DNA of 64,000 nt from Thermococcus indicus. Lineage in GTDB: Archaea; Methanobacteriota_B; Thermococci; Thermococcales; Thermococcaceae. The DNA lies in NCBI RefSeq assembly GCF_006274605.1, contig NZ_CP040846.1, positions 1,991,041 to 2,055,040 of the forward strand, read 5' to 3'. Within the stretch, counting starts at the first letter, position 1, and each line of letters starts with the position of its first letter. The translations under genes were made by a program, and so were the position numbers. This document shows, piece after piece, positions 46,663 to 64,000 of this stretch. The notes beneath the pieces are model-generated. The model saw only the letters and a program-made list of their open reading frames with translations, was not told the DNA's origin and did no database searches.

Positions 46663-46813
46663 CAACAGCCATTGCCTGCACAAAGTTTGATCGGAGAGGT
46701 TTAACTGTTCAGAAAGGAGCGGTCAAAAGTGGACATGCTTCTTCAAAACACGCTTTGAATTGCCAGTTTAGAAGTCAAACACCCAAAGAGCCAGCACAAA
46801 AGCATACCAAACT

Positions 46814-47698
46814 TTGATGAAACTTTGCCCAGCAAAGTTTCTGTGGCGGGCCGGGCGGGATTTGAACCCGCGACCTTCGGCTCCGGAGGCTCCTTTTGAT
46901 GATTGTGAGCCTCTCAAGAGGCTGTTTTTGGAAAAAGAACGACTACTATCAAAATGGGCGATTTGGGCAGAAAAGCAGCTCACAAAAAGAGTTGCCAGAG
47001 CGTATTTGAACGCACTCACAAAAGCGCAAACCTTCAATGATTTACTGCAGATGAGAGAAGGCTCCAAAACACAAAGATTGGCTCTCAGAAGCTTCGCAAA
47101 ATACACGTACGAGTCGAGAATCATCACGAAGGAAGAATACGAGGCGATAAAGAGGTGCGTCAAGCTCAAAAGAACGAACAACATCGATACGAGAGTCTAT
47201 AGCGACGAAGACATCACCAACATACTCCGCCAACTCACCAACAAAAAACACCACCTCTTCCTCCGGCTCGTCGTGGAAAGCGGTCTCCGTCGCTCTCACG
47301 CTATTTCAGCATGGAACAAACTCAGAAAAGGAGAATACACAACGATGGGAGAATTTGCGTACACAGAACTCAACATTCGGAACAAGACAAAACAAGCATT
47401 CGTCTGCTTCTGCTCCAAAGAGCTCGCAGATGCCATATACAAGATGAACGAGCCAGTATCCTACAACATCGCAGAAAACGTCGGCAAACGACAGAGAATA
47501 CTCTACAACGGCATACGGAAATGGTGGTACACCACAGCGCTTGACGTGGGAATGGACTCCAACGTTGCCGACTTTCTCCAGGGAAGAGCCCCAACCTCTA
47601 TCGGAGCTCGTCATTACCTCGATGCGCTCAGACTCGCAAAGAAGCAGTATCCCAAGCTTTTACAGGCCATCAAAGAGCGCATTTACTCGAACCTGTAA
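46814..47698 (+). CDS. SSV-type tyrosine integrase, C-terminal fragment Int(C)
   Basis: The reading frame passes through the tRNA-derived att (giving AGRDLNPRPSAPEAPF) into the catalytic region. Active-site residues: first Arg in VVESGLRRSHAISAW, the K/H-x-x-R region in GIRKWWYTTAL, and the Tyr in SIGARHYLDALR. In the free circle the frame would continue into Int(N), which integration moved to the far end. The codons before 46844 are host sequence, so this ORF's ATG is fortuitous. The split normally inactivates the integrase and stabilises the element. Confidence 0.85.
   Translation: MMKLCPAKFLWRAGRDLNPRPSAPEAPFDDCEPLKRLFLEKERLLSKWAIWAEKQLTKRVARAYLNALTKAQTFNDLLQMREGSKTQRLALRSFAKYTYESRIITKEEYEAIKRCVKLKRTNNIDTRVYSDEDITNILRQLTNKKHHLFLRLVVESGLRRSHAISAWNKLRKGEYTTMGEFAYTELNIRNKTKQAFVCFCSKELADAIYKMNEPVSYNIAENVGKRQRILYNGIRKWWYTTALDVGMDSNVADFLQGRAPTSIGARHYLDALRLAKKQYPKLLQAIKERIYSNL
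46819..46841. repeat. 9-bp perfect hairpin next to the att site
   Basis: GAAACTTTG-CCCAG-CAAAGTTTC, a perfect 9-bp stem with a 5-base loop, ends three bases before the tRNA-Arg 3' fragment. CAAAGTTTGAT-like pieces recur at 46679-46690 and 46808-46818. On the chromosome it would lie directly after the tRNA-Arg gene and could end its transcript. Confidence 0.55.
46844..46892 (-). other. attachment site: 3' half of tRNA-Arg(CCG)
   Basis: The minus strand reads CTCCGGA (anticodon loop, CCG), GCCGAAGGTCGCGGG, TTCAAATC (T loop), the acceptor strand and CCA ending at 46844. The 5' half is missing: bases beyond about 46890 belong to the integrase gene. Identity from the anticodon loop to the 3' end is the usual att core for SSV-type integrases. 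The complete tRNA-Arg should stand at the other end of the element, outside the window. Confidence 0.82.
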
Positions 47699-47952: not shown

Positions 47953-48107
47953 GAATACGAACCTCAGACCTCTTCACAATCGCCGACGCACTTGTAGTGC
48001 TCAGGGACCCAGAGATTGACATTACCTACCGCATGAGAATCGCGGACAAACTGGAGAGCCTCTACTGGAGGGCGTTGAAGGCATGGAAAGAGCAACACTC
48101 ATCATAG
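47949..48107 (+). CDS. Small hypothetical protein of the element (52 aa)
   Basis: MRIRTSDLFTIADALVVLRD followed by a basic helix ending KEQHSS. ATGA overlap with the previous gene and a 25-base overlap with the next indicate one operon of three small genes. Function unknown. Confidence 0.5.
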   Translation: MRIRTSDLFTIADALVVLRDPEIDITYRMRIADKLESLYWRALKAWKEQHSS

Positions 48108-48328
48108 AGAAGAGTATCCCTCCAACAGCGAAAGCAGAAGTCAGGGAATTGTTCCAGAACATCGATACCGGACGCTTCAAGTACATAGTGGTTGCATGGC
48201 TCGCATACTGGCATTACAGGAACTACAAACCGCCCCTCGTTCCCCTGAGTGTCAGTCTTGCCGCCGGATTGTTCAAGAAAAGGCCAAAAGAATTCCAAAG
48301 TGATGAATTTGAGGTTTATCCTCCGTGA
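48083..48328 (+). CDS. Small hypothetical protein of the element (81 aa)
   Basis: MERATLIIEKSIPPTAKAEV, then a moderately hydrophobic central stretch (YIVVAWLAYWHYRNY, PLSVSLAAGLF) and an acidic end. Could be membrane-associated. A strong hairpin terminator follows immediately. Confidence 0.5.
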   Translation: MERATLIIEKSIPPTAKAEVRELFQNIDTGRFKYIVVAWLAYWHYRNYKPPLVPLSVSLAAGLFKKRPKEFQSDEFEVYPP

Positions 48329-48423: not shown

Positions 48424-48681
48424 TCACTCTTGCTTTATCTTCCGCTCCAAGCCCTTTATCATGCCATAGAGCTTATTCAGGTACTTACTCTTGTACTGCC
48501 TCCCCTCCTCATCGTAAACGACGTCCAGAATCTTTTCGATTACCTTGATTCTTGCCTCATGATCCTCGAACTGATCCTCAGCCCACTCCATATCCCCCTT
48601 CAAGGAGGCGACATCTCTCCGAAGTTTGGCAATCTCTCGCCTGAGATCCTCGAGTTCTTCACGGATTTCCTCATCCCTCAC
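48424..48681 (-). CDS. Coiled-coil protein coupled to the resolvase (85 aa)
   Basis: MRDEEIREELEDLRREIAKL continues as a heptad-like coiled coil through residue 60, then a basic end. It starts at GTG 48681, inside the last codons of the resolvase gene (11-base overlap), so the two are made together. Its role, perhaps in recombination or partition, is a guess. Confidence 0.55.
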   Translation of the reverse strand: MRDEEIREELEDLRREIAKLRRDVASLKGDMEWAEDQFEDHEARIKVIEKILDVVYDEEGRQYKSKYLNKLYGMIKGLERKIKQE

Positions 48682-49336
48682 CGCCTATCACCTCCTTGAG
48701 CTTTTTCCTGTCAATCCTGACCACCTTGAGCTCACTCAAAGCCCCTGCTTCCCTGAGCCTCCTGAGGGCCCTACTCACTGTACTCGGACTCACATTGAGA
48801 ATACCTGCGATTTTGCGGGCAGAGAATCCCTTCTGATACAGTTCAACCACAGTAACCAGCTTTCCTTCGTCCAACACAGGCGGCCTCCCCAACCGCTTAC
48901 CCTTCCCCCTCGCACGCATCAAGCCCTCCCTTGTCCTCTTCCGGATGAACTCGCGCTCGAGGTCGGCAAAAAGGGCCAACAGAGTCGTCATTATCTTGAA
49001 CTGCATGGCATCGGAAGTACTATCCAGACCCTCCTTGACGGCGACAACGCGAACTCCCTTCTCCGTCAGTTCATTGAGGGTCAATATGACATCGCCGAGC
49101 GAACGTCCCAGCCGAGTCAGCTCGGAAACCACGAGAATATCACCTTCCCGAGCCATTTCCAGTATTTTTGAGAAGCCCGGACGCTTCTTGGCAGGTATAC
49201 CACCAGAAACCCCCTCATCCTTGATGATTTCAAACTCCTCAATCCCCTTCTCAGAAAGCCAGCCCTTTACGCTTTCCATTTGACTGTCTATGTCCTGCTC
49301 GTCCGTGCTCACTCGGAGGTACACGTACACCGTCAT
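48671..49336 (-). CDS. Serine recombinase (resolvase/invertase family)
   Basis: 221 residues from MTVYVYLRVSTDEQDIDSQ, with the nucleophile Ser in RVSTDEQ. Other family motifs: DEGVSGGIPAKKRPGF, LVVSELTRLGRS and FADLEREFIRKRTREGL. The C-terminal HTH (FSARKIAGILNVSPSTVSRALR) binds DNA. Likely resolves multimers of the element or inverts a segment. Start chosen at ATG 49336 because the TATA box is at 49367-49377; the longer frame would include it. Confidence 0.88.
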   Translation of the reverse strand: MTVYVYLRVSTDEQDIDSQMESVKGWLSEKGIEEFEIIKDEGVSGGIPAKKRPGFSKILEMAREGDILVVSELTRLGRSLGDVILTLNELTEKGVRVVAVKEGLDSTSDAMQFKIMTTLLALFADLEREFIRKRTREGLMRARGKGKRLGRPPVLDEGKLVTVVELYQKGFSARKIAGILNVSPSTVSRALRRLREAGALSELKVVRIDRKKLKEVIGGEG

Positions 49337-49366
49337 CTGGCACACCCAAGTATGTATCATAAACAT

Positions 49367-49377
49367 CGATATAAACT
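49367..49377 (-). promoter_or_regulatory. TATA box of the resolvase operon
   Basis: Minus-strand AGTTTATATCG about 36 bases before ATG 49336. The 215-base gap to the helicase start also holds the helicase promoter in the opposite direction. Confidence 0.6.
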
Positions 49378-49509
49378 TTTGCACTATTGTACCAAAAATC
49401 TCAAAATGATAGATTTGACGTTTCAAAAATCTGCGCATCAACAGTTATGAAACATAAAGCCAGAACCGAGCCAATTTGACACAACCGAACCAACAAAGCT
49501 CCCGCAACT

Positions 49510-49551: not shown

Positions 49552-52500
49552 ATGAACGGGAGGATAAAACCAGGCTACATCCTCAAGAGTACGAAATGGA
49601 AGGAGCCTTTTCTCGTCGAGATTGTGAACGAAAGTGGAGACACAATCATGGTGGGAGGCCACTACCTCAACTCCCGCAAGGCCGACCTCTACATACTGAC
49701 AAAAGCCGACCTTGAGGAGATTGAAATCATCACAAATCCCCTCGACTTCAAAGGAGACCCAGAAGCAGTTGCCCTCGCAATCGAGGGAGAACGGTACCAT
49801 TTCGCCTCACTCTATGACCCAATACTCGCGGTCAGCGTCTCGAAAATAGCACCCCTTCCATTCCAGATCGACGCGGTCTACAACCACATCCTCAGGAACC
49901 CCGAGATACGCTTCCTCCTCGCGGACGACCCCGGTGCCGGAAAAACCATCATGGCGGGCCTTGTGATAAAGGAGCTCAAGCTCAGAGGCTTGGCGGAGAG
50001 AATCCTCATAGTCGTTCCCGGCCATCTCGTACCCCAGTGGAAGAGGGAGATGAAGGAGAAGTTCCAGGAAGAGTTCACTATCGTCAACAGGGAGATTTTC
50101 CGGACGACAACCGACGTTTGGAGACGTGAAAAACAGGTAATTGCCTCAATAGACTTCCTCAAGCGGGAGGACATTCTGAAAAGCCTTGAGAACGTTGATT
50201 GGGACCTCGTGATAGTGGATGAAGCCCACAAGATGGCCGCATACCGCTTCGGGAAGAAGATCTACCGCACGAAGAGGTACAAAGTGGGTGAAGTGCTCTC
50301 AAGGAACTCCACCCACATGCTCTTTCTTACGGCCACACCACACAAGGGAGACCCGGAAAACTTCCGTCTCCTCCTTGACCTCCTTGTTCCGGGCCTTTTC
50401 AGCGACAAAGAGATACTCCTTGAGGCGATAAGAAGAAACGAAAACCCCATATTCCTCAGGAGAATGAAAGAAGACCTTGTAGACTTTGAGGGAAAGAAGA
50501 TATTCAAGCCCAGGTACTCTCACACGGTGAACTTCAACCTCACTGACAAGGAGATCAGGCTCTATAACGACCTATCCCTCTACATCCACGACCAGTACAC
50601 GGTTCTCGAAGGGAGCAGGCGGAGCATAGTCTTCCCGCTCGTGATACTCCAGAGAAGGTTCGCATCGAGCACGTACGCACTTCTCCAGTCCCTCAGGCGC
50701 AGAAAAGCACGCCTCAAGGAGTACCTTGAGAGCGGAGAGCTTGAGAACAAGGGTGTGCAACTCGACTTTGAGGACCTCCTTGAGCTCGAGGATGAGGAAG
50801 AGAGGGAAAGGTGGAAGGCCGAGCTGAGGCTCGAAGGCCTCCCCATAGTGAGAAAGAGGAAGCTCATAGAGGCCGAGATAAAGACTCTCGACAAGCTCAT
50901 AAGGATGAGCGAGGAGCTGATAGCATCGGAGGAAGAGACGAAGCTCAAGAAGCTCAGAGAGACGCTGGACTTCATAGCGAGGGAGCACGGCGAGAAAGAG
51001 AAGATCCTCATCTTCACGGAGTTCAAGGACACCCTTGAGTACCTCGTGAACAAGCTCCAAGAGTGGGGCTACACGGTCACCTTCATCCACGGCGAGATGG
51101 ACATGGAGACGAGGCTCCAACGCGAAAAGGACTTCAGGGAGTGGGCTCAGGTCATGGTGGCCACCGAGGCGGCCGGAGAGGGTATCAACCTCCAGTTCTG
51201 CCACCTGCTCATAAACTACGACATCCCCTGGAACCCCAACCGGCTTGAGCAGAGGATAGGAAGGGTGCACCGCTACGGTCAGAGGTATCCGGTTCACATC
51301 TTCAATTTCGTGGCCAAAAACACAAGAGAAGGCATGGTACTTGAGAGGCTTCTCCACAAGATAGAGGAGATAAGGAAGGCCCTCGGGGATAAGGTCTTCG
51401 ACGTTATCGGAGAACTCCTCGATGGGGAGAACCTGTACACCCTCCTTGCGGAAGTCGCCGTCATGCTCAGAGACCCGGACAGTGTCCTGAAGGAGGAAGA
51501 GCCAAAGCTCCGGCCAGAGGAGATAAGGAAGAAGGCGGAAGAGCTCCTCGGGGAGAGCCTCGCGACGAAGCACATAGACCTGAGCAGGATAATGCAGCTC
51601 CTTGAGAAGGCCGAAGAGAACCGGCTATCGCCGGAGTACCTCGAACTCTTCTTTATCAAGGCCATGAAGCGCCTCAACGCGAGAATACGGGAGAAGGAAC
51701 CACACGTTTACTCGGTTGAGAGAACCCCCAGGGTCCTGAGGGAGATAGCGGAGAGGAAGCAGTACGGCACGGTGGAGCGCTCGTACAAGGCCATAACCTT
51801 TGACAAAGCAATCTCCGAGAAAAGGGACGACGTGGAGTTCGTCTCGTTCGGGCATCCGCTCTTCGAAGCCCTCCGCGAGTGGGTTCAGGAGGGGTACCTC
51901 AAAGAGCTCCAGCGCGGAGCGGTCTTCTACGACCCCAGGAACAGACTCCACGGCACCATCTGGTTCTTCGAGGGTGAAGTTCAGGACGGCTTCAACAAGA
52001 CGGCGGGCAAGACGCTCGTGGCGGTCTACGACGATGGAGAGAGCCTTGAGGTCATAGACCCGAAAATAATATGGGACTTCGAACCGGCCAGAGACTCCCC
52101 CGAGGTGGAGGTTGAGTTCAGCCGGAGAGAGAACGCGATGATCTACGCCATGAAGGTCCTCGAAGAGTACAAGGACAGGCTTCTCAAGGAGAGGAAGAGG
52201 CAGGCGGAGATAAAGGAGAAGTACGGGGTGAAGTCCCTCAAGAAGCTGATAGACGACCTCGACTACAAGCTGGCCGAGTACGAGCTCCTCCCGCCGGAGG
52301 AGAAGAAGAGGTACGCACTCACCATAAGGAACCTTGAGGAGAGGCTGAACCGTTATCGGAAGGCGCTGGAGGAACTTCCGGAAAGGATTGCCAGGGAGAC
52401 GAGCCTCATGGTAAGACCTCCCGTCTTCATTGGGGCCATCTACGTGCTCCCGAGGGGAGAGATGGGCGAAGACCCGACGATAGAGGAGATAGGGATGCAG

Positions 52501-52845
52501 ATAGCTATGGAGTACGAGAGGAGGCAGGGAAGGGAGCCGAGGGACGTGTCAAAGGACAACCTCGGCTACGACATCTACTCCGAGGGGAAGGGTGAGAAGA
52601 GGCACATCGAGGTGAAGGCGAGGGCAAGGCTTGGCAACGTCGAGCTCACGTGGAACGAGTACGTTACCGCGAAGAGGCTCCGCGACAAGTACTGGCTTTA
52701 CGTCGTTGCGTACGCCGCTGAAAAGCCGACCCTCTACATCATCCGCGATCCCGCTCACACGCTCAAGGTCGTGGAGAAGTACGAGATAAGGTTCAAAGTC
52801 CCGGTTGAAGAGTGGAGAGAGAAGGGTAAGAAGGTTGAAGTCTGA
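49552..52845 (+). CDS. SNF2/SF2 helicase with C-terminal DUF3883 nuclease-like domain
   Basis: 1097 residues. Helicase motifs: ADDPGAGKTIMAGLV (Walker A), LVIVDEAHKM (DEAH), MLFLTATPHKG (III), LIFTEFKDTLEYLV (IV), ATEAAGEGINLQFC (V) and QRIGRVHRYGQ (VI). After a long coiled-coil part (residues 690-980) comes DUF3883, with GYDIYSEG...HIEVKAR, an arrangement like PD-(D/E)xK nucleases. Relatives are DrmD of DISARM and BrxHII of BREX. The methyltransferase gene follows after 12 bases, so both form one operon. Probably recognises or translocates on foreign DNA. Confidence 0.88.
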   Translation: MNGRIKPGYILKSTKWKEPFLVEIVNESGDTIMVGGHYLNSRKADLYILTKADLEEIEIITNPLDFKGDPEAVALAIEGERYHFASLYDPILAVSVSKIAPLPFQIDAVYNHILRNPEIRFLLADDPGAGKTIMAGLVIKELKLRGLAERILIVVPGHLVPQWKREMKEKFQEEFTIVNREIFRTTTDVWRREKQVIASIDFLKREDILKSLENVDWDLVIVDEAHKMAAYRFGKKIYRTKRYKVGEVLSRNSTHMLFLTATPHKGDPENFRLLLDLLVPGLFSDKEILLEAIRRNENPIFLRRMKEDLVDFEGKKIFKPRYSHTVNFNLTDKEIRLYNDLSLYIHDQYTVLEGSRRSIVFPLVILQRRFASSTYALLQSLRRRKARLKEYLESGELENKGVQLDFEDLLELEDEEERERWKAELRLEGLPIVRKRKLIEAEIKTLDKLIRMSEELIASEEETKLKKLRETLDFIAREHGEKEKILIFTEFKDTLEYLVNKLQEWGYTVTFIHGEMDMETRLQREKDFREWAQVMVATEAAGEGINLQFCHLLINYDIPWNPNRLEQRIGRVHRYGQRYPVHIFNFVAKNTREGMVLERLLHKIEEIRKALGDKVFDVIGELLDGENLYTLLAEVAVMLRDPDSVLKEEEPKLRPEEIRKKAEELLGESLATKHIDLSRIMQLLEKAEENRLSPEYLELFFIKAMKRLNARIREKEPHVYSVERTPRVLREIAERKQYGTVERSYKAITFDKAISEKRDDVEFVSFGHPLFEALREWVQEGYLKELQRGAVFYDPRNRLHGTIWFFEGEVQDGFNKTAGKTLVAVYDDGESLEVIDPKIIWDFEPARDSPEVEVEFSRRENAMIYAMKVLEEYKDRLLKERKRQAEIKEKYGVKSLKKLIDDLDYKLAEYELLPPEEKKRYALTIRNLEERLNRYRKALEELPERIARETSLMVRPPVFIGAIYVLPRGEMGEDPTIEEIGMQIAMEYERRQGREPRDVSKDNLGYDIYSEGKGEKRHIEVKARARLGNVELTWNEYVTAKRLRDKYWLYVVAYAAEKPTLYIIRDPAHTLKVVEKYEIRFKVPVEEWREKGKKVEV

Positions 52846-52857
52846 GGAGGCGGTAGA

Positions 52858-55629
52858 ATGGAAGACAAACGCTTTATCGAGGTCGCTTTCCCAGTCAAGG
52901 CGGTAAGTGAGGAGTCAGCAAGGGAGAAGAACATAAGGCACGGCCACATCTCAACGCTCCACATCTGGTGGGCGAGGCGCCCGCTGGCTTCTTCCCGCGC
53001 GACCAACTACGCCGCACTCATTCCGGCCACGAACGACGAGCACGAGATTGAGAGGAGGAAGAAGTTCATAGCCGAGCTCTCGAAGTGGGAGAATTCACTC
53101 AACGAGGAAATCATAAGAAGGGCCCGCGAGGACATCATGGAGTACTTCAGGCAGATACGTGATGACCCAAACCAAGAGAGGCCCCGTGTTCTTGACCCCT
53201 TCGCGGGTGGTGGCTCCATACCGCTTGAGGCACTGCGCCTCGGCCTTGAAACGTACGCCCTCGACTACAATCCAGTTGCCGTTCTCATCCTCAAGGCGGT
53301 CCTTGAGTACCCCCAGAAGTACGGGAAGAAGAAAGGAGCGCTCGACGAGTGGATAGCTGGAGGGAAAGGTGAAGGGAAGGACTACGACCTCGTGAGGGAC
53401 GTGAAGAAATGGGGCGAGTGGGTTCTCCAGGAGGCAAAGAAGGAGCTTGAGCGCTTCTATCCCAAAGACGAAGACGGCTACATCCCGGTCGGCTACATCT
53501 GGGCGAGAACGATAAAGTGCCAGAACCCGGCCTGCGGGGCCGAGATACCGCTCATGAGACAGTTCTGGCTGGCGAAGAAGAACAACAAGAAGGTGGCGCT
53601 CTACCCGTACGTTGAGGGGAACGAGGTGAAGTTCAAGATAGTGGGAGACGGCTACGAGCCAATGCCTGCAGACTTTGATCCCTCGAAGGGCACCGTGAAG
53701 GGCGCGAAGGTCACCTGTCCCGTCTGCGGCATGACCCACGACGCGAACACCACGAGAAAGCTCTTCCGCGAGGGGAAGGCCGGCCAGAGGATGGTGGCGG
53801 TTGTTCTCTACCACCCGGAGAAGAGGGGCAAGGTGTACCGCCTGCCAACGGAGAGGGACGTCAAAGCCTACGAGGAGGCGAAGCGCTACCTTGAGGAGAA
53901 GCGGGCGAAGCTGATGGAGGAGTGGGGCATCGACCCGGTGCCGGATGAACCAACGCCGGAAGGCAGGGGCAGAGGGGCCGAGAGGGCATTCTCAGTGAGG
54001 AACTACGGACTGAACACCTGGGGCGACCTCTTCAACGACAGGCAGAAGCTCGCGCTGATAACATTCGCCGAGAAGGTGAGGCAGGCCTACGAGAAGATGC
54101 TTGAGGAGGGCTACGAGGAGGAGTACGCGAAGGCCGTGGTGACGTACTTGGCTTTCACACTCGATAAGTTGGCAGATGCATGTAGTTCAAATGGCAGGTG
54201 GAAGCCAGATACAGTACAACTCATCCCCACCCTCAGTGGACGACAAGCAATCCAGATGATGTGGGATTATTTTGAGCTGAATCCAATTTCAGGGGCCAGT
54301 AGGGAATGGTCAAACACTCTATCCGTTATTCTGAGTAGTTTCAGAATATTTGAACAGATTGAATTTCCAGCCAGAGTCATTCATTCATCAGCTACATCTC
54401 TCCCATTCCCGGACAACTACTTCGACGCCGTCTTTACCGATCCGCCCTATTACGACAACGTGCCTTACTCCTACCTCAGCGACTTCTTCTACGTCTGGCT
54501 GAAGCGTACAGTTGGAGACCTCTATCCTGAGCTGTTCATAACCCCGCTCACGCCGAAGAGCAAGGAGCTCGTGGCTTACACCCAAAACCAGGACTGGGAG
54601 GCGGCGAAGAGGTACTTCGAGGAGGGAATGAAGCAGGCTTTGAAGGAAATCCACCGCGTCCTCAAGCCGAACGGAATCCTCGTGCTCGTCTATGCTCACA
54701 AGACGACAGAGGGCTGGGAGACCCTCATAAACTCGCTCCTCGACTCGGGCCTCGTCCCAACCGCTTCATGGCCAATTCACACGGAGATGGCAAACAGGCT
54801 CAGAGCGAAGGAGTCTGCGGCTCTCGCATCATCAATCTACATCGTCGCCCGCAAGGTGGAGAAGCAGGGCGTCGGCTGGTTCGATGAGGTGAAGCGGGAG
54901 CTCAAGGAGAAGCTTGAGGAGAAGCTCGACCAGCTCTGGAGGGAGGGCATAAGCGGTGCGGACTTCTTCATCTCGGCCATAGGCTCGGCCATTGAGGTCT
55001 TCGGCAAGTACGAGAGGGTTCTCGACTACGAGGGCAACGAGATAAGGGGCGACCGCCTGCTCCAGCTCGTGAGGGACATGGTGAGCGATTACGCCATAAG
55101 GCAGGTTCTCAGGGAGGACATCTCCTCCGAACTTTCTCCGCTCGCGAAGTTCTACGTGCTCTGGCGCTGGACGTACGGCGAGGCGAAGGTTCCATTCGAC
55201 GAGGCGAGGAAGCTGGCAACTTCCGTCGGCCTCGACCTCGAAAAGGAGTGGAACAGGGGCTTCATCGTGAAGGAGAAGGAGTTCATCCGGGTTCTCGGCC
55301 CGCAGGACAGGAAGCTCAAGGAGATAAAGGGCAACGACCTCATCGATGTCCTCCACAAAGCTCTGCTCCTCTGGCAGGCCAACAGGAAGAGGGAGATGGT
55401 CGGCCTGCTCGCCGAGACGGGGTGGGGCGAGAAGGACGTCTTCTACAAGGTGGCCCAGGTCATCAGCGAGGTTCTCCCGAAGGACAGCAAGGAGAAGAAG
55501 CTGCTCGACGGCTTCCTCGCAGGCAGGGAGCACATAAAGCGGGCCATTGAGAAGGGCGATTACTCGGTTTTCAACGGAGAAGAGGAATCAGGAAAGCAGG
55601 AGACGATTGAGCGGTTCATAAAGGGCTGA
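52858..55629 (+). CDS. DUF1156 adenine-specific DNA methyltransferase
   Basis: 923 residues. The N-terminal DUF1156 part begins with the characteristic [24 protein letters not shown] and [15 protein letters not shown]-binding motif [18 protein letters not shown] and catalytic motif TDPPYYDN are far apart, with two cysteine pairs (CQNPACG, CPVCG) as a zinc ribbon between. The type matches PglX-like enzymes of BREX type 3 and related systems. Expected to methylate adenine at host sites for self-marking. A stretch at about 54165-54410 is distinctly A/T-rich compared with the rest. The end is 5 bases from the convergent PIN gene. Confidence 0.9.
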
Positions 55630-55634
55630 GCACT

Positions 55635-56333
55635 CTATTCGGCCCTCTTTTCAATTTCGTCGAGGAGATAAACCACCTGAAGCTTTATCTCCGGGTTCTC
55701 CGCTCTCAGTTCCTCAAGGACTTTCCGGGCGGTTCCCGCAAAGTTTCTATCGAGAGTGTAGAGGGTACACGGCTCGTCTGTCTTGGCCGAGAACATTACC
55801 GCCTCGCTGAAGATGAGGGCATCGTAGTCGTCCTTGAATCTCTCCCTTACCCTGTCGTAGATGTCTATCGCGGATTCAAGCTCTTCAGTTTCAAAGCTTA
55901 CAATCCTGTGGGTACTGCTGAGCCTGTCTATCTTCGACATCTGCTCGATTATGAAGTCGTTCATCTCCTTGAGGAGCTTCACCCGTTTTCTGACGAGAAG
56001 AAGGCCCCTCTCCTCGGCGACTTTTACAATGTACTCGCAGAAGTTGAGGATTTGAGGCTCGGTTTCCCGGCAGATTTGAATAGTGAGCTCTCTGATGGCC
56101 CTTATCTCTTCCTCTTCGCTTGAGAACTCCATTTTGTTCGCTTTGCTTATGGCCTTCTTGAGCTTTGTGAGGGCGCTGAAGGCTTTTTCATAGAAAGTCT
56201 GTCGGAGTTCCTGGTAAACGGACTCCATTATGTCCATTCGACTGTCCTTGAAGAACTCCTCAACGAGCTTGTGGTTGGGGTCAGTGTCTACGACTTTGGC
56301 CACTACGATGTTGGTGTCGACGAAGTTGGCCAT
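55635..56333 (-). CDS. PIN-domain protein (nuclease/toxin-like)
   Basis: 232 residues. MANFVDTNIVVAKVVD carries the first aspartate (Asp6), SVYQELRQTF an acid, DDYDALIFSEAV the third acid and TLYTLDRNFAGT the last, the four-acid PIN layout. A long helical insert (residues 60-150) makes it larger than VapC toxins. It starts 31 bases inside the end of the upstream gene, so a coupled pair. Could be an RNase toxin or the nuclease of the surrounding defence cassette. All predicted catalytic acids are present. Confidence 0.75.
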   Translation of the reverse strand: MANFVDTNIVVAKVVDTDPNHKLVEEFFKDSRMDIMESVYQELRQTFYEKAFSALTKLKKAISKANKMEFSSEEEEIRAIRELTIQICRETEPQILNFCEYIVKVAEERGLLLVRKRVKLLKEMNDFIIEQMSKIDRLSSTHRIVSFETEELESAIDIYDRVRERFKDDYDALIFSEAVMFSAKTDEPCTLYTLDRNFAGTARKVLEELRAENPEIKLQVVYLLDEIEKRAE

Positions 56334-57052
56334 CCCTTCCCCACCAGTTTGATGAGTTCCTCGATTTCCTCCGGGCTGGCTTTTCTTTCAAGCTCGGGAA
56401 CCATCTCGACTATGTCCTTCCTGAGAAGGGGAAGGTGCTCGAGCTTGCCGTTGAGTATCGCAAGTATCCTGAGGCTGAGCATGAGGATGTAGATTGAGAG
56501 CTCCGGGTTCTTCCAGTCCTCCAGCATCTTCTCGTAGAGCTTGATGAGGAGCGCTATTCCCTGGTCGAGTGTCATGTACCTCTCAAACTCTTCATCCGGC
56601 ATCTCCGGATCGGAGGCTATCTCAAGGATGCTCTCCCTCATGGAGTTCAAAAGCCCCATCTGTCTCCTGATGTCGGTTCTTATTGAGTTCTTGAGCTCGT
56701 TCTCGTTGAGGATGTGCATAAGTTCGTCTATCTCGTCCATCACATCGGCGAGCTCTTCCTCGAATATCTTGAGCACTTCGGATTGAGCCTTGAGGTAGTG
56801 CATCCTGCTCGCTTCGCTGGGCAGTACCTCGATTATACGGGAGATGAGAACGTCCTTCTTCTCATCCAGCAGTTCTCTCAGGCGGAGGAGTGCCCTGAAC
56901 CTGTGAGTCTGGTGCTTCTTCCTCACGTAGGGAATGGCAGAGAAGTAGGGGTCTATGGCGTCAAGTACCCCCATAAGCAGGTCATCGCTGTACTTATCGA
57001 TCACAACCTCAGGAAGTGCCCAATGGCCTCTCCCGCTCTGAAGGGATTCCAT
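56303..57052 (-). CDS. Helical partner of the PIN protein (about 249 aa)
   Basis: Not recognised. Almost wholly alpha-helical and acidic: VLDAIDPYFSAIPYVRKKH near the start, then EVLKIFEEELADVMDEIDEL and long helices. ATG 57052 is preceded by CAGTGAG; TATA CATTTATAAGG at about 57085-57095 leaves a short leader. The overlap with the PIN gene and order (partner first) is that of toxin-antitoxin or effector-inhibitor pairs. No HTH or RHH domain is evident. Confidence 0.55.
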   Translation of the reverse strand: MESLQSGRGHWALPEVVIDKYSDDLLMGVLDAIDPYFSAIPYVRKKHQTHRFRALLRLRELLDEKKDVLISRIIEVLPSEASRMHYLKAQSEVLKIFEEELADVMDEIDELMHILNENELKNSIRTDIRRQMGLLNSMRESILEIASDPEMPDEEFERYMTLDQGIALLIKLYEKMLEDWKNPELSIYILMLSLRILAILNGKLEHLPLLRKDIVEMVPELERKASPEEIEELIKLVGKGWPTSSTPTS

Positions 57053-57172
57053 GGTTCTCACTGTTTGCCATTCCGATGCAGTCCCTTATAAATGATTCCA
57101 TCGAGAAACTCTGTCGATGAGGGTATGGGGGAACAGAAAAGCTTTTGTATCTGTGACACCTCGTAACACGAA

Positions 57173-58258
57173 ATGGGTGACTGCCTCCTGAGGGGAATAG
57201 CGGGTCTTGTAGTTGTTGGGTTTATTGTACTGATGTTCTTGGCAACGACTTGGGAGTGGGGACTCGTTCAGCACGGAGCAACATCCGAGGAGAAAGTGGC
57301 AATCCCGCTGAGCTTCTCAAATGATTCCAGCGCCTCGATTCCAGCCAATACAGTGGAGAGTACTTCTCCAAGCGTCTTTTCTGGTGAGTCCAGGGAGCAG
57401 GTCCCTTCAATGTCGGAAGAGCTCAAACCACTCAACCTGAGCCAGGAAGAAGCTCTCCAGCTCAGGACGAGCCTCCAAAACTTCACCCAGAGCCTGTGGG
57501 ATAGCATATCCACGTACGGTTATGACAACGTTACGATTGCTTTGGCGACCTCCATTGCATCCCTTCCCATGCTCCCCGAATGCGAGAACCTCTCAGGATA
57601 CCAGAACCTTACCGCATACAGCGAAGAAGTTTCAAACCTTACGGTGGCCCTCCACAAGTACAAAAATCTTGCAGAGGGCCTATCAAAAGATTACGGGATT
57701 GAACTGCCTTATTTGAACGACAGAGAAATCAGAAAGCTCAAAAACACCCTCAAGCCCTCACAGGTTGAAGACATGTTTATGATGTGCTCGTTTGCCCGTG
57801 ACTACAACAGGCTCATCATAGCAGCCGGGCAAGTGGTTCCAGGAGATAGGGACACCTACTCGGCTTTCTACGAGAGGCTCTTTGTAGTGGGGCTGGAACT
57901 CATCTTCATGAAGGAGAACGTTGCTTACAAGGTTTCGTACAAGCTCGTGGGCAATCTCCTCTGGAAGACCCACCTTTTCCACGTGATATACCGCTATGGG
58001 GGTAGCACCGCTCTCAAGGTCGTCATGAGCACAATGCACTGGGAGATCAGGGGACTTATAAACAGGTACTTTGAGGCCTTTGGAGACAATCCAGAGATGG
58101 TAGAGGAGCTCATTTCAAAGATTGATGATCCGGACTGGGTTCGGGCTCAAGTGAGCTCTCTGGGGGAGCTACTCGGAAACAAGACCAAGGAACTCATAGG
58201 GAACAAAACGGACCTCGTGGATAAACTCAAGGGTCTCTTTGGGTCGGATGGTGGATGA
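57173..58258 (+). CDS. Membrane-anchored external protein of the defence cassette
   Basis: 361 residues. Residues 8-27 (IAGLVVVGFIVLMFLATTWEW) are a single N-terminal membrane anchor; the rest is outside, Ser/Thr-rich at 40-85 with many N-glycosylation sequons (NDSS, NLS, NFT, NVT, NLT, NKT), then helical with WKTHLFHVIYR and ALKVVMSTMHWE. Not recognised. It sits between the PIN pair and the ATPase gene and points the same way as the ATPase. Possibly a surface exclusion or cargo gene. Confidence 0.55.
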   Translation: MGDCLLRGIAGLVVVGFIVLMFLATTWEWGLVQHGATSEEKVAIPLSFSNDSSASIPANTVESTSPSVFSGESREQVPSMSEELKPLNLSQEEALQLRTSLQNFTQSLWDSISTYGYDNVTIALATSIASLPMLPECENLSGYQNLTAYSEEVSNLTVALHKYKNLAEGLSKDYGIELPYLNDREIRKLKNTLKPSQVEDMFMMCSFARDYNRLIIAAGQVVPGDRDTYSAFYERLFVVGLELIFMKENVAYKVSYKLVGNLLWKTHLFHVIYRYGGSTALKVVMSTMHWEIRGLINRYFEAFGDNPEMVEELISKIDDPDWVRAQVSSLGELLGNKTKELIGNKTDLVDKLKGLFGSDGG

Positions 58259-58310
58259 GCAACCGGAAAGCCCAAATACTCCCGAGGGTATATGGTTCGG
58301 AGGTGTAACC

Positions 58311-60962
58311 ATGGAGCTGAAGCCGTTTTACCAGATCGCCATTCCCCACGATGATATAAAGGAAGGGAAGTTCACCCTTGATACCTTCGCCGCTGACCTC
58401 TGGAGCGTGTATCAAGACAGGGGACCTGAGGATTACAGGAACCCTGAGCTCTTCTGGGAGAGAACGTACATAACGAGTGGGTTGAGTGCCCTCCTTGACA
58501 TAGCAAGGAAAAGACTCCTCGAGGGCGTTGGGGACGCGGTGATACAGCTTCAGACTCCCTTTGGCGGGGGTAAGACTCACTCGCTTATAGCCCTCTATCA
58601 CAAGGCCAAGAAGTGGGGCGCGAACGTGGTCGTTCTTGATGGGACTGCCTTTGACGCGAGGGAGGTCATCCTCTGGGAGGAGCTTGAGCGCCAGCTCACG
58701 GGCAGTGTAAGGCGCCTCAAGGGCAACGTCGCCCCGGGAAAGATAAAGCTATCGGAACTCCTTGAGGAGAAGGCTCCAGTGCTGATTCTCGTTGATGAAC
58801 TCCTTGAGTACATGGTAAAGGCCGCTGGGGTTACCGTTGGAGAAACCACCCTCGCCGACCAGACACTGGCCTTCATCCACGAGCTCACTGAAGTCGTGAA
58901 GTCCACCGACAGGGTTCTTCTCGTCATGACCCTTCCGTCCAGCATTCTTGAGCACTACTCGGAGAAGGCCGAGGAGTACTTCCAGAAGCTCCAGAAGATA
59001 GTGGGGCGCTCTCAGAAGGTGTTCACTCCAGTACAGGAGGAGGAAGTCCATGACGTCATCAGAACGAGGCTCTTCAAGAGGATTGATGAGTCCGAGATGG
59101 AGGCCGTTGTGAAGCGTGTGGTAGAGTACCTTGAGAAGGAAGGCCTCATCCCTGAGGGCCTCAACGCCTATCAGTACCGCCAGAGGTTCCTCAGGAGTTA
59201 CCCCTTCCAGCCAGAGGTCATTGACGTTCTCTACCACCGCTGGGGTAGCCTGCCGAAGTTCCAGAGGACGAGGGGCGTGCTGAGGCTCCTCTCCATAGTG
59301 GTCCACTCGCTCATCGGAAGGGATGTGTCCTTCATCAGGCTCTCCGACTTCGACTTGAGTGTCAAAACGCTCAGGGACGAGCTCATAGACATCATCGGGG
59401 AGAGCAGGTACTACTCGGTTCTTGATGCTGACATTCTCTCGCCCAACTCGGGCGCAAAGCGTGTTGACAGGATGGTCGGCGAATCCTACGAACACTATCG
59501 CGTGGGGACGAGGGCGGCAACTGTCATCTTCATGTACTCCTTCTCCGGCGGGGACGTGAGAGGAGCCACCACGAAGGAGATAAAGCTCTCCTGTGCTGAC
59601 ACGAGGTACTCGAGCAGTATAGTGGGGGACGCCATCCTCTACCTCAAAGATAGTCTGCTCTACCTCCACTACCGCGATGGTCGGTACTTCTTCAGCCTTG
59701 AGCCAAGCCTCAACAAGCTCGTCGTGGACGAGATGAACAACGTGAGCGAGGAGCAGATAAGGGACGTTGAACACGAACTGCTGAAGGGCCAGCTCAAGGG
59801 GCGGTACTTCAAGGTCTACCTGTGGCCGAGTAAGCCGGTGGACGTTCCCGATAGTGACCCAAGCTTGAAACTCGTTGTTCTCCCAGAATACGACAAGGAG
59901 AAGGTCCTCCAGATTCTGCAATCTTATGGCGGTAGCGAGAGAGTCCACAAGAACACCCTCATCTTCCTCGTTCCAAGGGAGACTGAGAGGGCCAGTTTCA
60001 ACAGGCTCGTGAGGAGGTATCTTGCATGGAAAATCATCGACGAGAAGGCAAAGAGGGGCTCCCTGGAGCTCACTTCAGAGCAAAAGAATGACGTGAAGGA
60101 GAATTTGAAGCGAGCACGGGAGGACATCGTTCAAAAGATAGCGGAGCTTTACAGGCTGGTTCTCCTGCCCACGCGCGGTGGCTACGAAGAGCTTGACCTC
60201 GGCATGAAGCCTGTGGGCATCAAGAAGACCATCGAGGAGCTCATCTATGAGAAGCTCAGGGAAGAGGGTAAGCTCGTCGAGAAGATGGCCCCAGTGGTCA
60301 TCGAGATGAAGTACCTGGATGGAAAGGAGTACGTTCCAACGAAGGCACTCTACGAGAGCTTCCTCAAGACTCCGGGAATGCCTCTCCTGAAGAGCAAGAG
60401 CGTGCTTATAGACGCGATAAGGCAGGGAGTAAGCGAGGGACGCTTCGGATTGGGATACCTCACCGGGGAGGAGGTAACCTGCGAGTACCTTGGTGAAAAG
60501 CCCACGGTCACTCTCGACGAGAAGGAGGTCATCGTGAACAGGAAGTACTGTGAGGAGCTGAGGACAAGAGCAAAGGCTGAAGCTGAGGCAGAAGCTGAAG
60601 CTCAAGCTATAGCTCAAGAGAAAGCTACAGCTGGGAGCGTAGCTGAAGCTTCCGGGGAAGAGTGGAAGCCTCCCGCAGTCAGAGACAGGCAGGCTGTGCT
60701 TGTGCCCCCGGAAACAGAGGGTAGAGAAGAAGTAGTGGTGGGAAGCCAGGTAGAGTCCATTCACCTGCACCTGACACTGGGACCAGGAACTGGAGGGCTG
60801 AGGGACATATTGAGGGCGTTGAATCTGCTGAAGATCAAGTTTGAGAGGGTTACCATCGAGATAAAGGCAGAGAGGGGGAACATGAGCCAGACGGAGTATG
60901 AGAATCTGCTTGAGACGTTCAGACAGCTCGGGATTGACGTTGAAGAACTTGGGGAGGAATAA
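58311..60962 (+). CDS. DUF499 P-loop ATPase (PglY/BrxC-like)
   Basis: 883 residues from MELKPFYQIAIPHDDI, six bases after GGAGGTG. Walker A is LQTPFGGGKTHSLIALYH, Walker B VLILVDELLEYM, both DUF499 hallmarks; KSTDRVLLVMTLPSS looks like sensor 1. The Ala/Glu-rich repeat (AKAEAEAEAEAQAIAQ) at about 770-785 links to a small C-terminal domain (SIHLHLTLGPGTGG). DUF499 ATPases occur with DUF1156 methyltransferases in BREX-like loci. It probably powers DNA recognition or assembles the restriction complex. Confidence 0.88.
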   Translation: MELKPFYQIAIPHDDIKEGKFTLDTFAADLWSVYQDRGPEDYRNPELFWERTYITSGLSALLDIARKRLLEGVGDAVIQLQTPFGGGKTHSLIALYHKAKKWGANVVVLDGTAFDAREVILWEELERQLTGSVRRLKGNVAPGKIKLSELLEEKAPVLILVDELLEYMVKAAGVTVGETTLADQTLAFIHELTEVVKSTDRVLLVMTLPSSILEHYSEKAEEYFQKLQKIVGRSQKVFTPVQEEEVHDVIRTRLFKRIDESEMEAVVKRVVEYLEKEGLIPEGLNAYQYRQRFLRSYPFQPEVIDVLYHRWGSLPKFQRTRGVLRLLSIVVHSLIGRDVSFIRLSDFDLSVKTLRDELIDIIGESRYYSVLDADILSPNSGAKRVDRMVGESYEHYRVGTRAATVIFMYSFSGGDVRGATTKEIKLSCADTRYSSSIVGDAILYLKDSLLYLHYRDGRYFFSLEPSLNKLVVDEMNNVSEEQIRDVEHELLKGQLKGRYFKVYLWPSKPVDVPDSDPSLKLVVLPEYDKEKVLQILQSYGGSERVHKNTLIFLVPRETERASFNRLVRRYLAWKIIDEKAKRGSLELTSEQKNDVKENLKRAREDIVQKIAELYRLVLLPTRGGYEELDLGMKPVGIKKTIEELIYEKLREEGKLVEKMAPVVIEMKYLDGKEYVPTKALYESFLKTPGMPLLKSKSVLIDAIRQGVSEGRFGLGYLTGEEVTCEYLGEKPTVTLDEKEVIVNRKYCEELRTRAKAEAEAEAEAQAIAQEKATAGSVAEASGEEWKPPAVRDRQAVLVPPETEGREEVVVGSQVESIHLHLTLGPGTGGLRDILRALNLLKIKFERVTIEIKAERGNMSQTEYENLLETFRQLGIDVEELGEE

Positions 60963-61225: not shown

Positions 61226-61684
61226 ATGGGTAGGTATAACCTGTACATACCTGCCTCCACAAAGTACCTTCTCAGAAGGGCTTCAAAGAGACTACACACC
61301 AACCAGATGGATCTGGCCCGTAAAATCGCTGAGGGAAAGGTTGATTTTGACGACATATACACCTGGGGTCTTGATTTGAGGGACAGGGAGAGGATAAGGT
61401 TCCTCTATGAGACCGAGAAGGAATTCGCCTTCAAGGCTGTTTTTCCCGTGCGTACAGAGAATCCCAATGAAGTGAGAAGTAGCATTCTGGCCGTAAGTGA
61501 GATGGTCAGGAGGATTGTAGAGAAGTTTTACCAGAACCATGAAGATCTCTATGAGGCGATAGGGAGTGTCCATACTGCAATTTGGAGAATACAGCACACC
61601 GATGGACTCACAGAGTGGGACAGGAAGCACCTTGCAAGGCATGTAGAAGAGATTCAAAAGCTTCTCAGGGGTGATGAACAATGA
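61226..61684 (+). CDS. Putative DNA-binding protein, first gene of replication operon (152 aa)
   Basis: The N-terminus GRYNLYIPASTKYLLRRASK with following helix TNQMDLARKIAEG could be a ribbon-helix-helix-like domain; the rest is helical (SILAVSEMVRRIVEKFYQNH). I do not recognise a family. Its place before the primase, the palindrome at its promoter, and a stop that overlaps the primase ATG suggest a copy-number or replication regulator. Confidence 0.5.
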   Translation: MGRYNLYIPASTKYLLRRASKRLHTNQMDLARKIAEGKVDFDDIYTWGLDLRDRERIRFLYETEKEFAFKAVFPVRTENPNEVRSSILAVSEMVRRIVEKFYQNHEDLYEAIGSVHTAIWRIQHTDGLTEWDRKHLARHVEEIQKLLRGDEQ

Positions 61685-63690
61685 TGCCAAAGCACGCCAG
61701 TCTTATCAGCGACGAAGATAGGGCAATCCTCGAAAACAGGGATGCTCTTTCTGGCATGATACGGAAGTACCTGGAGTTCCTCTATGAGAACACGAAGCAA
61801 GAGTACTGGTTCGAGGTGAGAATTCTTGGGATGGATGGAAGCGTAAAGCGTAGGTTGTTCAGAATCAAGGACATTGGGAGGGCTACGAGTTACATCATCA
61901 GAGAAATGAACTCGGACAGCAGAATAAAGGGCATATACGTCACTATAAATCCTGCCGGAGGTCAGAAAGAGGGCTCTTTTACGAACGATGACATACTCGA
62001 AGTGATAAACCTGCCAATTGATGTGGACATCTTCCACAACAGAGTTCCATCGGAGGTTGAGATATCGGCTGTGAAGGGAGCGATAAAGGGGGCTGTCCGG
62101 AGGCTGTTTGGGAAGTACAACTTCAGGTACATGATAGTTTTCTCGGGCTTTGGATTCCACGTGTACCTCAAGGTGAACCCTGTGGAAGTTGGGGACAGAA
62201 ACTGGCAGGCGGCTTTCCGGGAGGTTGGAAGAGAACTCGCAGACGAGTTTGAGAGGGTGCTCAAAGAGAGCATAGACCCAAACTATTCATATCTCGTCGA
62301 GGATGCTGTGGATAAGAGCGTGTACAACCCTTCACGCATTATGAGGGTTGCTTGGACTGTGAACAGGCGAAAGATAGGTGGAACAATCTACGAGGCCGTT
62401 TCAAAGATAGTTGAGATTTCCGGAGCGGACAGGCTTGAAATTGACGAACTCGTCAAGAAAAAGCTCCGGGAAGGTATTACAACGCGGGAAGAGCTCCACA
62501 TTGAGAATATGGGTAGCATAAGGCTCAACAGCGAGGAAAAAGACGCCTTGATAGAAGTCCTGAAAAAGTACTACATGCCTGGCAGGAGGCACAACCTCGT
62601 TCTCGGATTTGCCGCCTTTGCTTGGCACAAAGGGATTCGAGTGGAGGACACACTCGAAGTTGTGAGAAGAGTGTACGTTGAGACCCGGGATAGTGACCCT
62701 TGGGATGATCGGGAGAGGGCAGTTCTGGACACGTACTCGGCGACGCTGAAGAACTACAGGAGCTACCTGGGGAAAGGGACTATCTGGGAACTCAACAGGG
62801 CACTCCGCTCATACTACCAGCGGGCAATGACAAAAAAGAAGGAGGAACCAAGTGAGTACTCCGTAACAAGTGCTCAAAGGGTTCTCTCCAATGATTTTGA
62901 CCTTCTTGAGTGGCTTATCGAGCGTACCTCCGATATAATCAAAGAGGTGGACGAAAAGAGTGGCAAGGTAACGTACAAAGTCTCGTTTGTTGTGGAGACA
63001 ACAGGAAAGGTGGAGACAATCGTTCTCAAGAACACGGAGCGGACAGAGAAGGAGAAGATGTTCTATGCTCTCAACGAGGACTTTATGGCCCACTTTGGGG
63101 TTTACATAGTTGACCCGCTTTCAATCAGGAAGCTCAACAGACAGGAAAGGAGTAAGCTCAATGACATTCTCGCCAAGATAATGCTGGATTACTATGCATT
63201 CGTTACAAGAAACGCGAAAGAGATTGTAATAGAGGAGTACGAAGAGGTCAAGAACGTTTTCCTGGATATCATCGAGACCGAGGTCCTTGAGATAGTGAAA
63301 ATTGACGAGTTGAATTCAATAAGCGGAGACCGTGTCGACGAGATGTTCCGGAAAAGGATAATGATCTACGCTGAAAACGAGAACAGAGTCTATTTTGACC
63401 CCCATCTTCTCGAGTATGGGGCTGAGACACGTGGATTCGCCCGAACTCTTGCCAAGTTCCTTCATAGAATAGGGATTATTGACAAGAAAACCTGGAGAGA
63501 AGTCAGGCGGAGCAAGTCTTTGAGAAATGGGGGACACGTATACCTCTATTATCTGATTTCAGACAGATTCTTTGACTTCCTTGAGAAAGAGAACGCCATA
63601 AAGCCTCCAATAAAGACAATCGATGAGTACTTGGATGAACAGGAGTACGTGGATCTTGATGAGATTGCAGAGGAGAGTGTTGTGGCGTGA
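61681..63690 (+). CDS. PrimPol-type (archaeo-eukaryotic primase superfamily) replication protein
   Basis: 669 residues. Motif I is LPIDVDIFHN (two catalytic acids), motif II is VFSGFGFHVYLKV, and motif III is AVDKSVYNPSRIMRVAWTVNRRKIG, the AEP primase-polymerase pattern of archaeal plasmids. A helical bundle follows (YYMPGRRHNLVLGFAAFAWHKG), like the PriCT domain that links primase to helicase, then a 300-residue C-terminal part with no clear Walker motif. The helicase appears to be supplied by the next gene. ATG 61681 overlaps the previous stop; ATG 61684 is possible. Confidence 0.8.
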   Translation: MMPKHASLISDEDRAILENRDALSGMIRKYLEFLYENTKQEYWFEVRILGMDGSVKRRLFRIKDIGRATSYIIREMNSDSRIKGIYVTINPAGGQKEGSFTNDDILEVINLPIDVDIFHNRVPSEVEISAVKGAIKGAVRRLFGKYNFRYMIVFSGFGFHVYLKVNPVEVGDRNWQAAFREVGRELADEFERVLKESIDPNYSYLVEDAVDKSVYNPSRIMRVAWTVNRRKIGGTIYEAVSKIVEISGADRLEIDELVKKKLREGITTREELHIENMGSIRLNSEEKDALIEVLKKYYMPGRRHNLVLGFAAFAWHKGIRVEDTLEVVRRVYVETRDSDPWDDRERAVLDTYSATLKNYRSYLGKGTIWELNRALRSYYQRAMTKKKEEPSEYSVTSAQRVLSNDFDLLEWLIERTSDIIKEVDEKSGKVTYKVSFVVETTGKVETIVLKNTERTEKEKMFYALNEDFMAHFGVYIVDPLSIRKLNRQERSKLNDILAKIMLDYYAFVTRNAKEIVIEEYEEVKNVFLDIIETEVLEIVKIDELNSISGDRVDEMFRKRIMIYAENENRVYFDPHLLEYGAETRGFARTLAKFLHRIGIIDKKTWREVRRSKSLRNGGHVYLYYLISDRFFDFLEKENAIKPPIKTIDEYLDEQEYVDLDEIAEESVVA

Positions 63691-64000
63691 ACGCCCAGAT
63701 AACCATTCTGGGACCTCCAGGGACAGGAAAGACCTCTGCTCTCATCAATCTCTACAAGTACTTTATAGGAGACGCTTCCACGGATGTTACAAGCTTCGTG
63801 CAACGATACAACCTCAATAAGCTCATCATGAGAAGGGATTACACGAGCGACGAGGTGCTCTTTCTCACCTTTACAACTTCTGCAGTCAGGGTTCTGAAAG
63901 AGAGAGGCATTTACAACGCGTACACTCTGCATAGTTATATCACAAGGGTTCTCATGCGGAATAAGCTACTCACGCCGTCGGGATTCATGAAAGAGCCGTT
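63687..64000 (+). CDS. SF1 (UvrD/Rep-like) helicase, N-terminal part
   Basis: The first 104 residues are present; the gene leaves the right edge. GTG 63687 overlaps the primase stop as GTGA. ITILGPPGTGKTSALINL is Walker A with the SF1 form, and LFLTFTTSAVRVLKERG is motif Ia. SF1 helicases beside PrimPol genes are known from Thermococcus plasmids. It would unwind the element's DNA during replication. Confidence 0.75.
   Translation, partial: MNAQITILGPPGTGKTSALINLYKYFIGDASTDVTSFVQRYNLNKLIMRRDYTSDEVLFLTFTTSAVRVLKERGIYNAYTLHSYITRVLMRNKLLTPSGFMKEP

What the first reader, a model, noticed from the sequence alone, without database searches (positions are those of the whole stretch)
46814..47698. 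Integrase gene split at a tRNA-Arg 3' copy marks the left end of an integrated element
A half tRNA(CCG), from anticodon loop to CCA, is fused in frame with the C-terminal catalytic part of a tyrosine integrase. This is the SSV-type arrangement, and it places everything to the right in a mobile element of at least 17 kb. It explains how the defence cassette arrived.
Basis: partly seen in the sequence, partly recalled or inferred. Interest (0 to 1): 0.7.

Follow-up and report, generated by a model that had tools for sequence, protein, structure and literature searches.

The report
Trapped archaeal element carrying Hma defence
A 19-kb plasmid-like DNA element inserted itself into an arginine tRNA gene of a Thermococcus chromosome, cutting its own integrase gene in two as it did so, and brought in an antiviral gene set; the kind of element is known, but this family carries the same defence genes in several relatives.

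Summary
The finding is real and its central prediction holds. The window lies in a 2.23-Mb Thermococcus genome. The 3' part of tRNA-Arg(CCG) (46844-46890, minus strand) runs in frame into the catalytic part of an SSV-type integrase. An intact tRNA-Arg(CCG) lies 18,877 bp to the right, 1.7 kb beyond the window end, directly preceded by Int(N). Joined across the 47-bp att, the halves give a stop-free 332-codon integrase. The cargo is an Hma defence system plus a plasmid-type replication pair. The same element occurs at tRNA-Arg(CCG) in two other genomes (one with empty-site counterparts in relatives) and at tRNA-Ile(GAT) in two more; a related Hma element sits in tRNA-Gly(GCC). All 7 Hma loci found in 61 genomes of the genus lie in such elements, one of them decayed. 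No other SSV-type integrase was detected in the genome, so the element is predicted to be trapped unless integrase is supplied in trans. One correction: the left flank is not the original neighbour of the tRNA-Arg; a ~114-kb inversion has a breakpoint between tRNA-Leu(TAG) and attL. Known kind of element (suicidal integrase); the constant Hma cargo under changing tRNA targets is the notable part.

The parts
46844..46890 (-). attL: 3' part of tRNA-Arg(CCG), 47 bp, anticodon loop to CCA
   Evidence: Identical to window-equivalent 65721-65767, inside the intact tRNA-Arg(CCG) at C1:2056761-2056838
46844..47698 (+). int(C): catalytic part of the split SSV-type tyrosine integrase, read through attL (ORF as called 46814-47698)
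   Evidence: Pfam Phage_integr_3 E 1.2e-25, phrog_5127 E 1.8e-38, SSV1 integrase structures; dN/dS 0.08-0.20. Its partner int(N) is outside the window at window-equivalent 65577-65767 (L018)
48083..48328 (+). 81-aa protein conserved in the element family, function unknown
   Evidence: Conserved in G007, G024, G047, G055, G029 and G037 elements
48424..48681 (-). 85-aa protein behind the resolvase gene
   Evidence: Conserved with the resolvase in related elements
48671..49441 (-). serine resolvase/invertase with HTH
   Evidence: Pfam Resolvase E 2.4e-37
49552..52845 (+). hmaA, SNF2-type helicase with NOV_C domain
   Evidence: PADLOC HmaA E 1.7e-191; Pfam
52858..55629 (+). hmaB, DNA methyltransferase with DUF1156
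   Evidence: PADLOC HmaB E 3.7e-147
55635..56333 (-). PIN-like protein, accessory pair with the next gene
   Evidence: Pfam PIN E 1.4e-4, just below the family cut-off; present in most but not all related elements
56303..57061 (-). DUF155-like protein
   Evidence: Weak Pfam match E 1.8e-4, below cut-off; conserved next to all seven Hma loci
57173..58258 (+). 361-aa protein, no family
   Evidence: No Pfam or PHROG match; in G024 and G047, absent from G007 and G055
58239..60962 (+). hmaC, DUF499 ATPase
   Evidence: PADLOC HmaC E 1.2e-131; Pfam DUF499 E 2.5e-41
61226..61684 (+). 152-aa protein of the replication operon, function unknown
   Evidence: Conserved in the five elements
61681..63690 (+). 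669-aa putative replicase of primase-polymerase type
   Evidence: Weak match to the pIRI48 replicase (30.8% over 148 aa, E 2e-3), stands before the helicase as in pTN2-like plasmids; only in the five elements of this family among 61 genomes. No Pfam or PDB support
63687..64000 (+). SF1 (UvrD-type) helicase, start only; runs to window-equivalent 65342
   Evidence: phrog_1967 DNA helicase E 7.2e-63; 27-30% identical to helicases of pEXT9a, pIRI33, pAMT7

Best explanation
This is an 18.9-kb plasmid-like integrative element with an SSV-type (type I, suicidal) tyrosine integrase. In its circular form the integrase gene was whole (332 codons) and carried attP near its 5' end, as a copy of the 3' half of tRNA-Arg(CCG). 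Recombination with the chromosomal tRNA-Arg(CCG) inserted the element, restored an intact tRNA at the right end and split the gene into int(N) (right) and int(C) (left). With the gene split and no related integrase elsewhere in the genome, the element should be locked in unless an incoming relative supplies integrase in trans. It carries a complete Hma (helicase, methyltransferase, ATPase) defence system and a replicase/SF1-helicase pair of plasmid type. Shown: att copies, split gene, rejoined frame, orthologous elements at two tRNA targets and a related one at a third, empty-site counterparts. Inferred: order of events, trapping, past replication as a plasmid, defence activity.
For: att pair and distance; int(N)+int(C) join to one open frame here and in G007, G024, G055; SSV1 integrase homology and the same layout with a tRNA-Arg(CCG)-type att inside the gene in SSV1; same element in four other genomes at tRNA-Arg(CCG) or tRNA-Ile(GAT) and a related one at tRNA-Gly(GCC); G024 attL flank equals the empty-site flank of G002 and G059; Hma; replication pair; no other SSV-type integrase in the genome; G+C 51.9% against 56.7-57.9% in the flanks.
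Against: No closest-relative empty site with the same left flank, because that flank is rearranged. No free circular form found. The primase-polymerase assignment rests on one weak match. Trapping and defence are not tested.
Confidence: 0.93

Rival explanations
1. The tRNA fragment and int(C) are a remnant of an older unrelated insertion, and the defence genes to the right are ordinary chromosome.
For: tRNA genes collect fragments of many elements; other integrases use the same tRNA in G035 and G010.
Against: int(N) at the far end matches int(C) as one protein in each of four genomes, and the whole stretch is conserved as a unit at different chromosomal sites.
Confidence: 0.02
2. The element is still mobile: int(C) and int(N), or a host recombinase, excise it.
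For: Low dN/dS of int(C); published weak recombination by truncated SSV integrases and excision of TKV4 when integrase is supplied in trans (PMC8371274; PMC5495485).
Against: The gene is split and no other SSV-type integrase was detected in the genome. Low dN/dS can be left over from the time when the gene was whole.
Confidence: 0.1
3. The Hma cassette was in the locus first, or entered on its own, and the integrase element is a later neighbour.
For: The cassette occurs in both orientations relative to the integrase and beside more than one integrase branch, so it has moved between elements.
Against: It lies inside the att pair at the same internal place in five elements at two tRNA genes; the genomes closest by a flanking gene lack it.
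Confidence: 0.04
4. It is a provirus and not a plasmid-like element.
For: SSV-type integrases are typical of fuselloviruses.
Against: No capsid or packaging gene recognised among the ORFs scanned; replication genes resemble plasmids; no relative in viral contigs.
Confidence: 0.05

Closest known systems
SSV1 and its integrase (Fuselloviridae, type I integrase)
   Same: Catalytic domain homology, att inside the integrase gene near its 5' end, tRNA-Arg(CCG)-type att sequence
   Different: About 29% identity; the element here has no recognised virus genes and carries Hma
pT26-2 plasmid family (pT26-2, pGE2, TKV2, TKV3, TGV1) with suicidal integrases in tRNA genes
   Same: Thermococcales, split integrase, some members in tRNA-Arg (PMC6972569)
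   Different: Integrase 27-31% identical and in a separate branch of the tree
pTN2-like plasmids and the integrated element TGV2
   Same: Replicase gene followed by an SF1 helicase gene; TGV2 is described as an integrated element with such a pair (PMC3543421)
   Different: Helicase only 27-30% identical to the plasmid ones; those plasmids carry no Hma in their description
Hma defence system (PADLOC; DUF499-centred BREX-related systems)
   Same: All three proteins with strong profile matches
   Different: An inverted PIN/DUF155-like pair stands between hmaB and hmaC; the carrier is a split-integrase archaeal element
pTN3/TKV4 suicidal elements and integrase-linked inversions (Cossu et al. 2017)
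   Same: Split integrase at a tRNA; chromosomal inversion with breakpoints at tRNA genes (PMC5495485)
   Different: Integrase not similar enough to be found by the searches made; cause of the inversion here not shown

Membership tests
SSV-type (type I, suicidal) integrase element | att site inside the integrase gene, so that integration splits it | tested here: met
   Rejoined frame with att at codons 49-64
SSV-type (type I, suicidal) integrase element | Int(N) and Int(C) at opposite ends, intact tRNA at one end | tested here: met
SSV-type (type I, suicidal) integrase element | Integrase with Phage_integr_3 domain (PF16795) | tested here: met
   E 1.2e-25; the review lists this domain for suicidal integrases (PMC8371274)
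SSV-type (type I, suicidal) integrase element | Integrase recombines its att site | not testable with these tools
   Needs an enzyme assay
Hma defence system | HmaA, HmaB and HmaC together | tested here: met
   hmaC is separated from hmaAB by three genes, which occurs in relatives too
Hma defence system | Protects against viruses | not testable with these tools
   Needs a challenge assay
pT26-2 plasmid family | Integrase of the pT26-2 branch | tested here: not met
   Separate branch, about 31% identity
pT26-2 plasmid family | pT26-2 core genes | not tested
   Core genes were not searched one by one
pTN2-like plasmid replicon | Primase-polymerase replicase before an SF1 helicase | tested here: inconclusive
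   Helicase match clear; replicase match weak, no Pfam or PDB support

The most novel reading that the evidence does not exclude
In Thermococcus the Hma system is not a chromosomal trait but the standing cargo of a family of suicidal-integrase plasmid elements that keep the cargo while changing tRNA target (Arg-CCG, Ile-GAT, Gly-GCC). Such elements give up mobility for permanent residence, which fits a cargo that pays its host: a defence element that locks itself in. Its integrase forms a Thermococcales branch separate from pT26-2.
Probability: 0.55. Interest if true: 0.6.

Novelty: new member of a known kind. Interest (0 to 1): 0.45.

Why it matters
It shows one way a large defence system spreads among hyperthermophilic archaea: on plasmid-like elements whose integrase destroys its own gene. 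Closely related elements in different tRNA genes give a natural series for asking how suicidal integrases change target, and whether benefit to the host from defence cargo helps such self-trapping elements persist.

Tried and rejected
Free relatives were sought: integrase in plasmids at most 33% identical, listed virus hits about 30% or less, none in viral contigs; replicase none in phages or viral contigs. AlphaFold of the 669-aa protein was poor (pLDDT 42.5) and its fold search gave nothing below E 0.001; not used. Pfam and PDB profile searches of that protein gave nothing useful. pTN3 could not be fetched under the accession tried, so it is missing from the tree. Badel et al. 2020 on suicidal integrases is not held, so I could not check whether this element family is listed there. 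Rejected: chance tRNA similarity, chromosomal origin of the cassette, provirus. The tree root is arbitrary and SSV1 is on a long branch, so only well-supported groupings are used.

Full report
OBSERVATION. The window is C1:1991041-2055040 of a two-contig, 2,234,010-base genome; a sister locus of the element is named Thermococcus sp., so the genus is taken to be Thermococcus. At 46844-46890 lies a 47-bp sequence identical to the 3' part of tRNA-Arg(CCG), on the minus strand, and an open frame runs through it into a tyrosine integrase catalytic domain ending at 47698. The domain matches Pfam Phage_integr_3 (E 1.2e-25), phrog_5127 (E 1.8e-38) and the SSV1 integrase structures 3vcf, 4dks and 3uxu, with the stretches GLRR, IRKWW and ARHY where catalytic residues are expected.

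THE OTHER END. A search of the genome with the att region found a second copy at C1:2056752-2056807. The DNA there holds an intact tRNA-Arg(CCG) (C1:2056761-2056838, minus strand; window-equivalent 65721-65798) and, running into it, an N-terminal integrase frame. The two att copies are 47 bp, identical, and 18,877 bp apart. Joining the right side to the left side at att gives one stop-free frame; from the likely TTG start behind GGAGGTGA it has 332 codons, with att at codons 49-64 (and arithmetic on it). SSV1's integrase has 335 aa with its annotated integration site at codons 64-78, and that site too has the CTCCGGAG anticodon loop of tRNA-Arg(CCG).

RELATIVES. Of 61 genomes of the genus, four others carry orthologous integrases at 82-96% identity: G007, G024, G055 and G047. 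The element aligns between them almost from end to end, with local replacements. G007 and G024 are inserted in tRNA-Arg(CCG), G055 and G047 in tRNA-Ile(GAT). Each has its own att pair (45-49 bp), and the rejoined integrase is open in G000, G007, G024 and G055; in G047 the gene is spread over two contigs and was not rejoined. Int(N) is only 53% identical between the Arg and Ile versions while the catalytic parts stay at 83-91%, the pattern expected for a target switch. G029 holds a more distant integrase (39%) of the same supported branch (100/99) at the ends of an element in tRNA-Gly(GCC), with its own att copy and Int(N) and an Hma cassette in the opposite orientation. G037 has another member of this branch and no HmaC.

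EMPTY SITE. G002 and G059 have an uninterrupted tRNA-Arg(CCG), and the sequence directly downstream of it is the same as the chromosomal sequence outside attL in G024. This shows a clean insertion for the orthologous element. In G035 an integrase fragment of a different branch lies at the same tRNA, and the sequence in G010 looks alike, so the site is a shared target.

CARGO. Between the ends lie a serine resolvase, HmaA, HmaB, an inverted PIN/DUF155-like pair, a 361-aa protein, HmaC, a 152-aa protein, a 669-aa protein and an SF1 helicase. The three Hma proteins have strong PADLOC matches. The helicase matches those of pEXT9a, pIRI33 and pAMT7 (28-29% identity over 98%). The 669-aa protein has a weak match to the pIRI48 replicase, described as a protein with a primase-polymerase domain encoded before the helicase; TGV2 is described as an integrated element with such a pair (PMC3543421). 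I read the pair as a plasmid replication module; the primase-polymerase assignment is inference. The G+C content of the element is 51.9%, against 56.7-57.9% for its flanks.

HMA GOES WITH SPLIT INTEGRASES. HmaC is found in 7 of 61 genomes. In five it is in this element, in G029 in the tRNA-Gly element, and in G060 directly beside tRNA-Arg(CCG) with only remnants of an integrase about 10.6 kb away and no second att copy found. The genomes closest to ours by the flanking peptidase gene (G021, G004, G032, G027, G002; 96-97% identity) lack Hma. Synonymous divergence from G024 is 0.16-0.48 for element genes against 1.1-1.7 for three chromosomal genes beside the site, but 0.46 for a glutamate synthase-like gene; this supports transfer without proving it. 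Int(C) has dN/dS 0.08-0.20, so most divergence arose while the gene was functional.

STATE OF THE ELEMENT. The search with Int(C) found no other SSV-type integrase in this genome. From what is published, split halves work poorly or not at all, but a related whole integrase can excise a trapped element (PMC8371274; PMC5495485). I therefore predict that it is trapped but can be rescued in trans. This was not tested.

THE LEFT FLANK. In G021 and G027 the locus of tRNA-Leu(TAG) and that of tRNA-Arg(CCG) are about 116 kb apart, and in most other single-contig relatives about 97-225 kb. In the window they are neighbours. The reciprocal junction was predicted and found: the genes that follow tRNA-Leu and tRNA-Arg in relatives (an MFS protein with a small membrane protein, and a radical SAM protein) are joined to each other at C1:1.9232-1.9236 Mb, about 114 kb to the left. 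So a ~114-kb inversion has one breakpoint in the 181 bp between tRNA-Leu and attL, where a dispersed hairpin repeat lies. The MFS match is only 60%, but the small gene behind it is syntenic. G022 has the same tRNA-Leu/tRNA-Arg neighbourhood without the element, so the arrangement does not depend on this element. Cossu et al. (PMC5495485) described inversions with tRNA pairs at their ends in Thermococcus and proposed integrase as the cause; whether this one was made by an integrase or by recombination between repeats is open.

KNOWN OR NEW. The mechanism is a known kind. The element is a new member: its integrase branch is separate from pT26-2 and has no close relative in the plasmid and virus collections searched. 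I could not check the 2020 catalogue of suicidal integrases or place pTN3 in the tree. The linkage of Hma to these elements and the change of tRNA target under a constant cargo are what I would put before a specialist.

Noticed in passing
46663-46843 (between tRNA-Leu and attL); partner junction at G000 C1:1.9232-1.9236 Mb (L121, L133): A ~114-kb inversion relative to G021/G027: tRNA-Leu(TAG) has become the neighbour of the tRNA-Arg att site, and the former downstream neighbours of both tRNAs are joined to each other.
   Followed up: partly
about 46780-46843; L002 1541-1652; L004, L005, L006; also next to attL in L057 and L059: A dispersed repeat with the hairpin AAACTTTGC...GCAAAGTTT stands directly downstream of several tRNA genes and in many other places of the genome. 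It may serve as terminator or as recombination site at inversion breakpoints.
   Followed up: partly
hmaB, about 54150-54400: A segment of roughly 80 residues in HmaB falls to 22-45% identity among seven loci while the rest stays mostly above 80%; likely the target-recognition part of the methyltransferase.
   Followed up: partly
hmaA-hmaB junction, 52846-52857; G024 (L053/L054), G047 (L056), G055 (L055): In three relatives the hmaA-hmaB junction holds an extra gene of about 155-188 codons: a membrane protein in G024, and in G047/G055 a protein with a nuclease-like stretch (VRFIGTPIDFIAF...VFIEVKSGK). An exchangeable accessory slot.
   Followed up: partly
55635-57061: Inverted PIN/DUF155-like pair between hmaB and hmaC; the DUF155-like gene is beside all seven Hma loci, the PIN-like gene is missing from G007 and G055.
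   Followed up: partly
L020 (G000 contig 2, 7,674 bp): The second contig looks like a small plasmid with a 1,048-aa replication protein; no integrase seen among its larger ORFs.
   Followed up: no
G035 contig 17 (L137, L138): A different integrase branch is split at the same tRNA-Arg(CCG), so this tRNA is a shared target of unrelated elements.
   Followed up: partly
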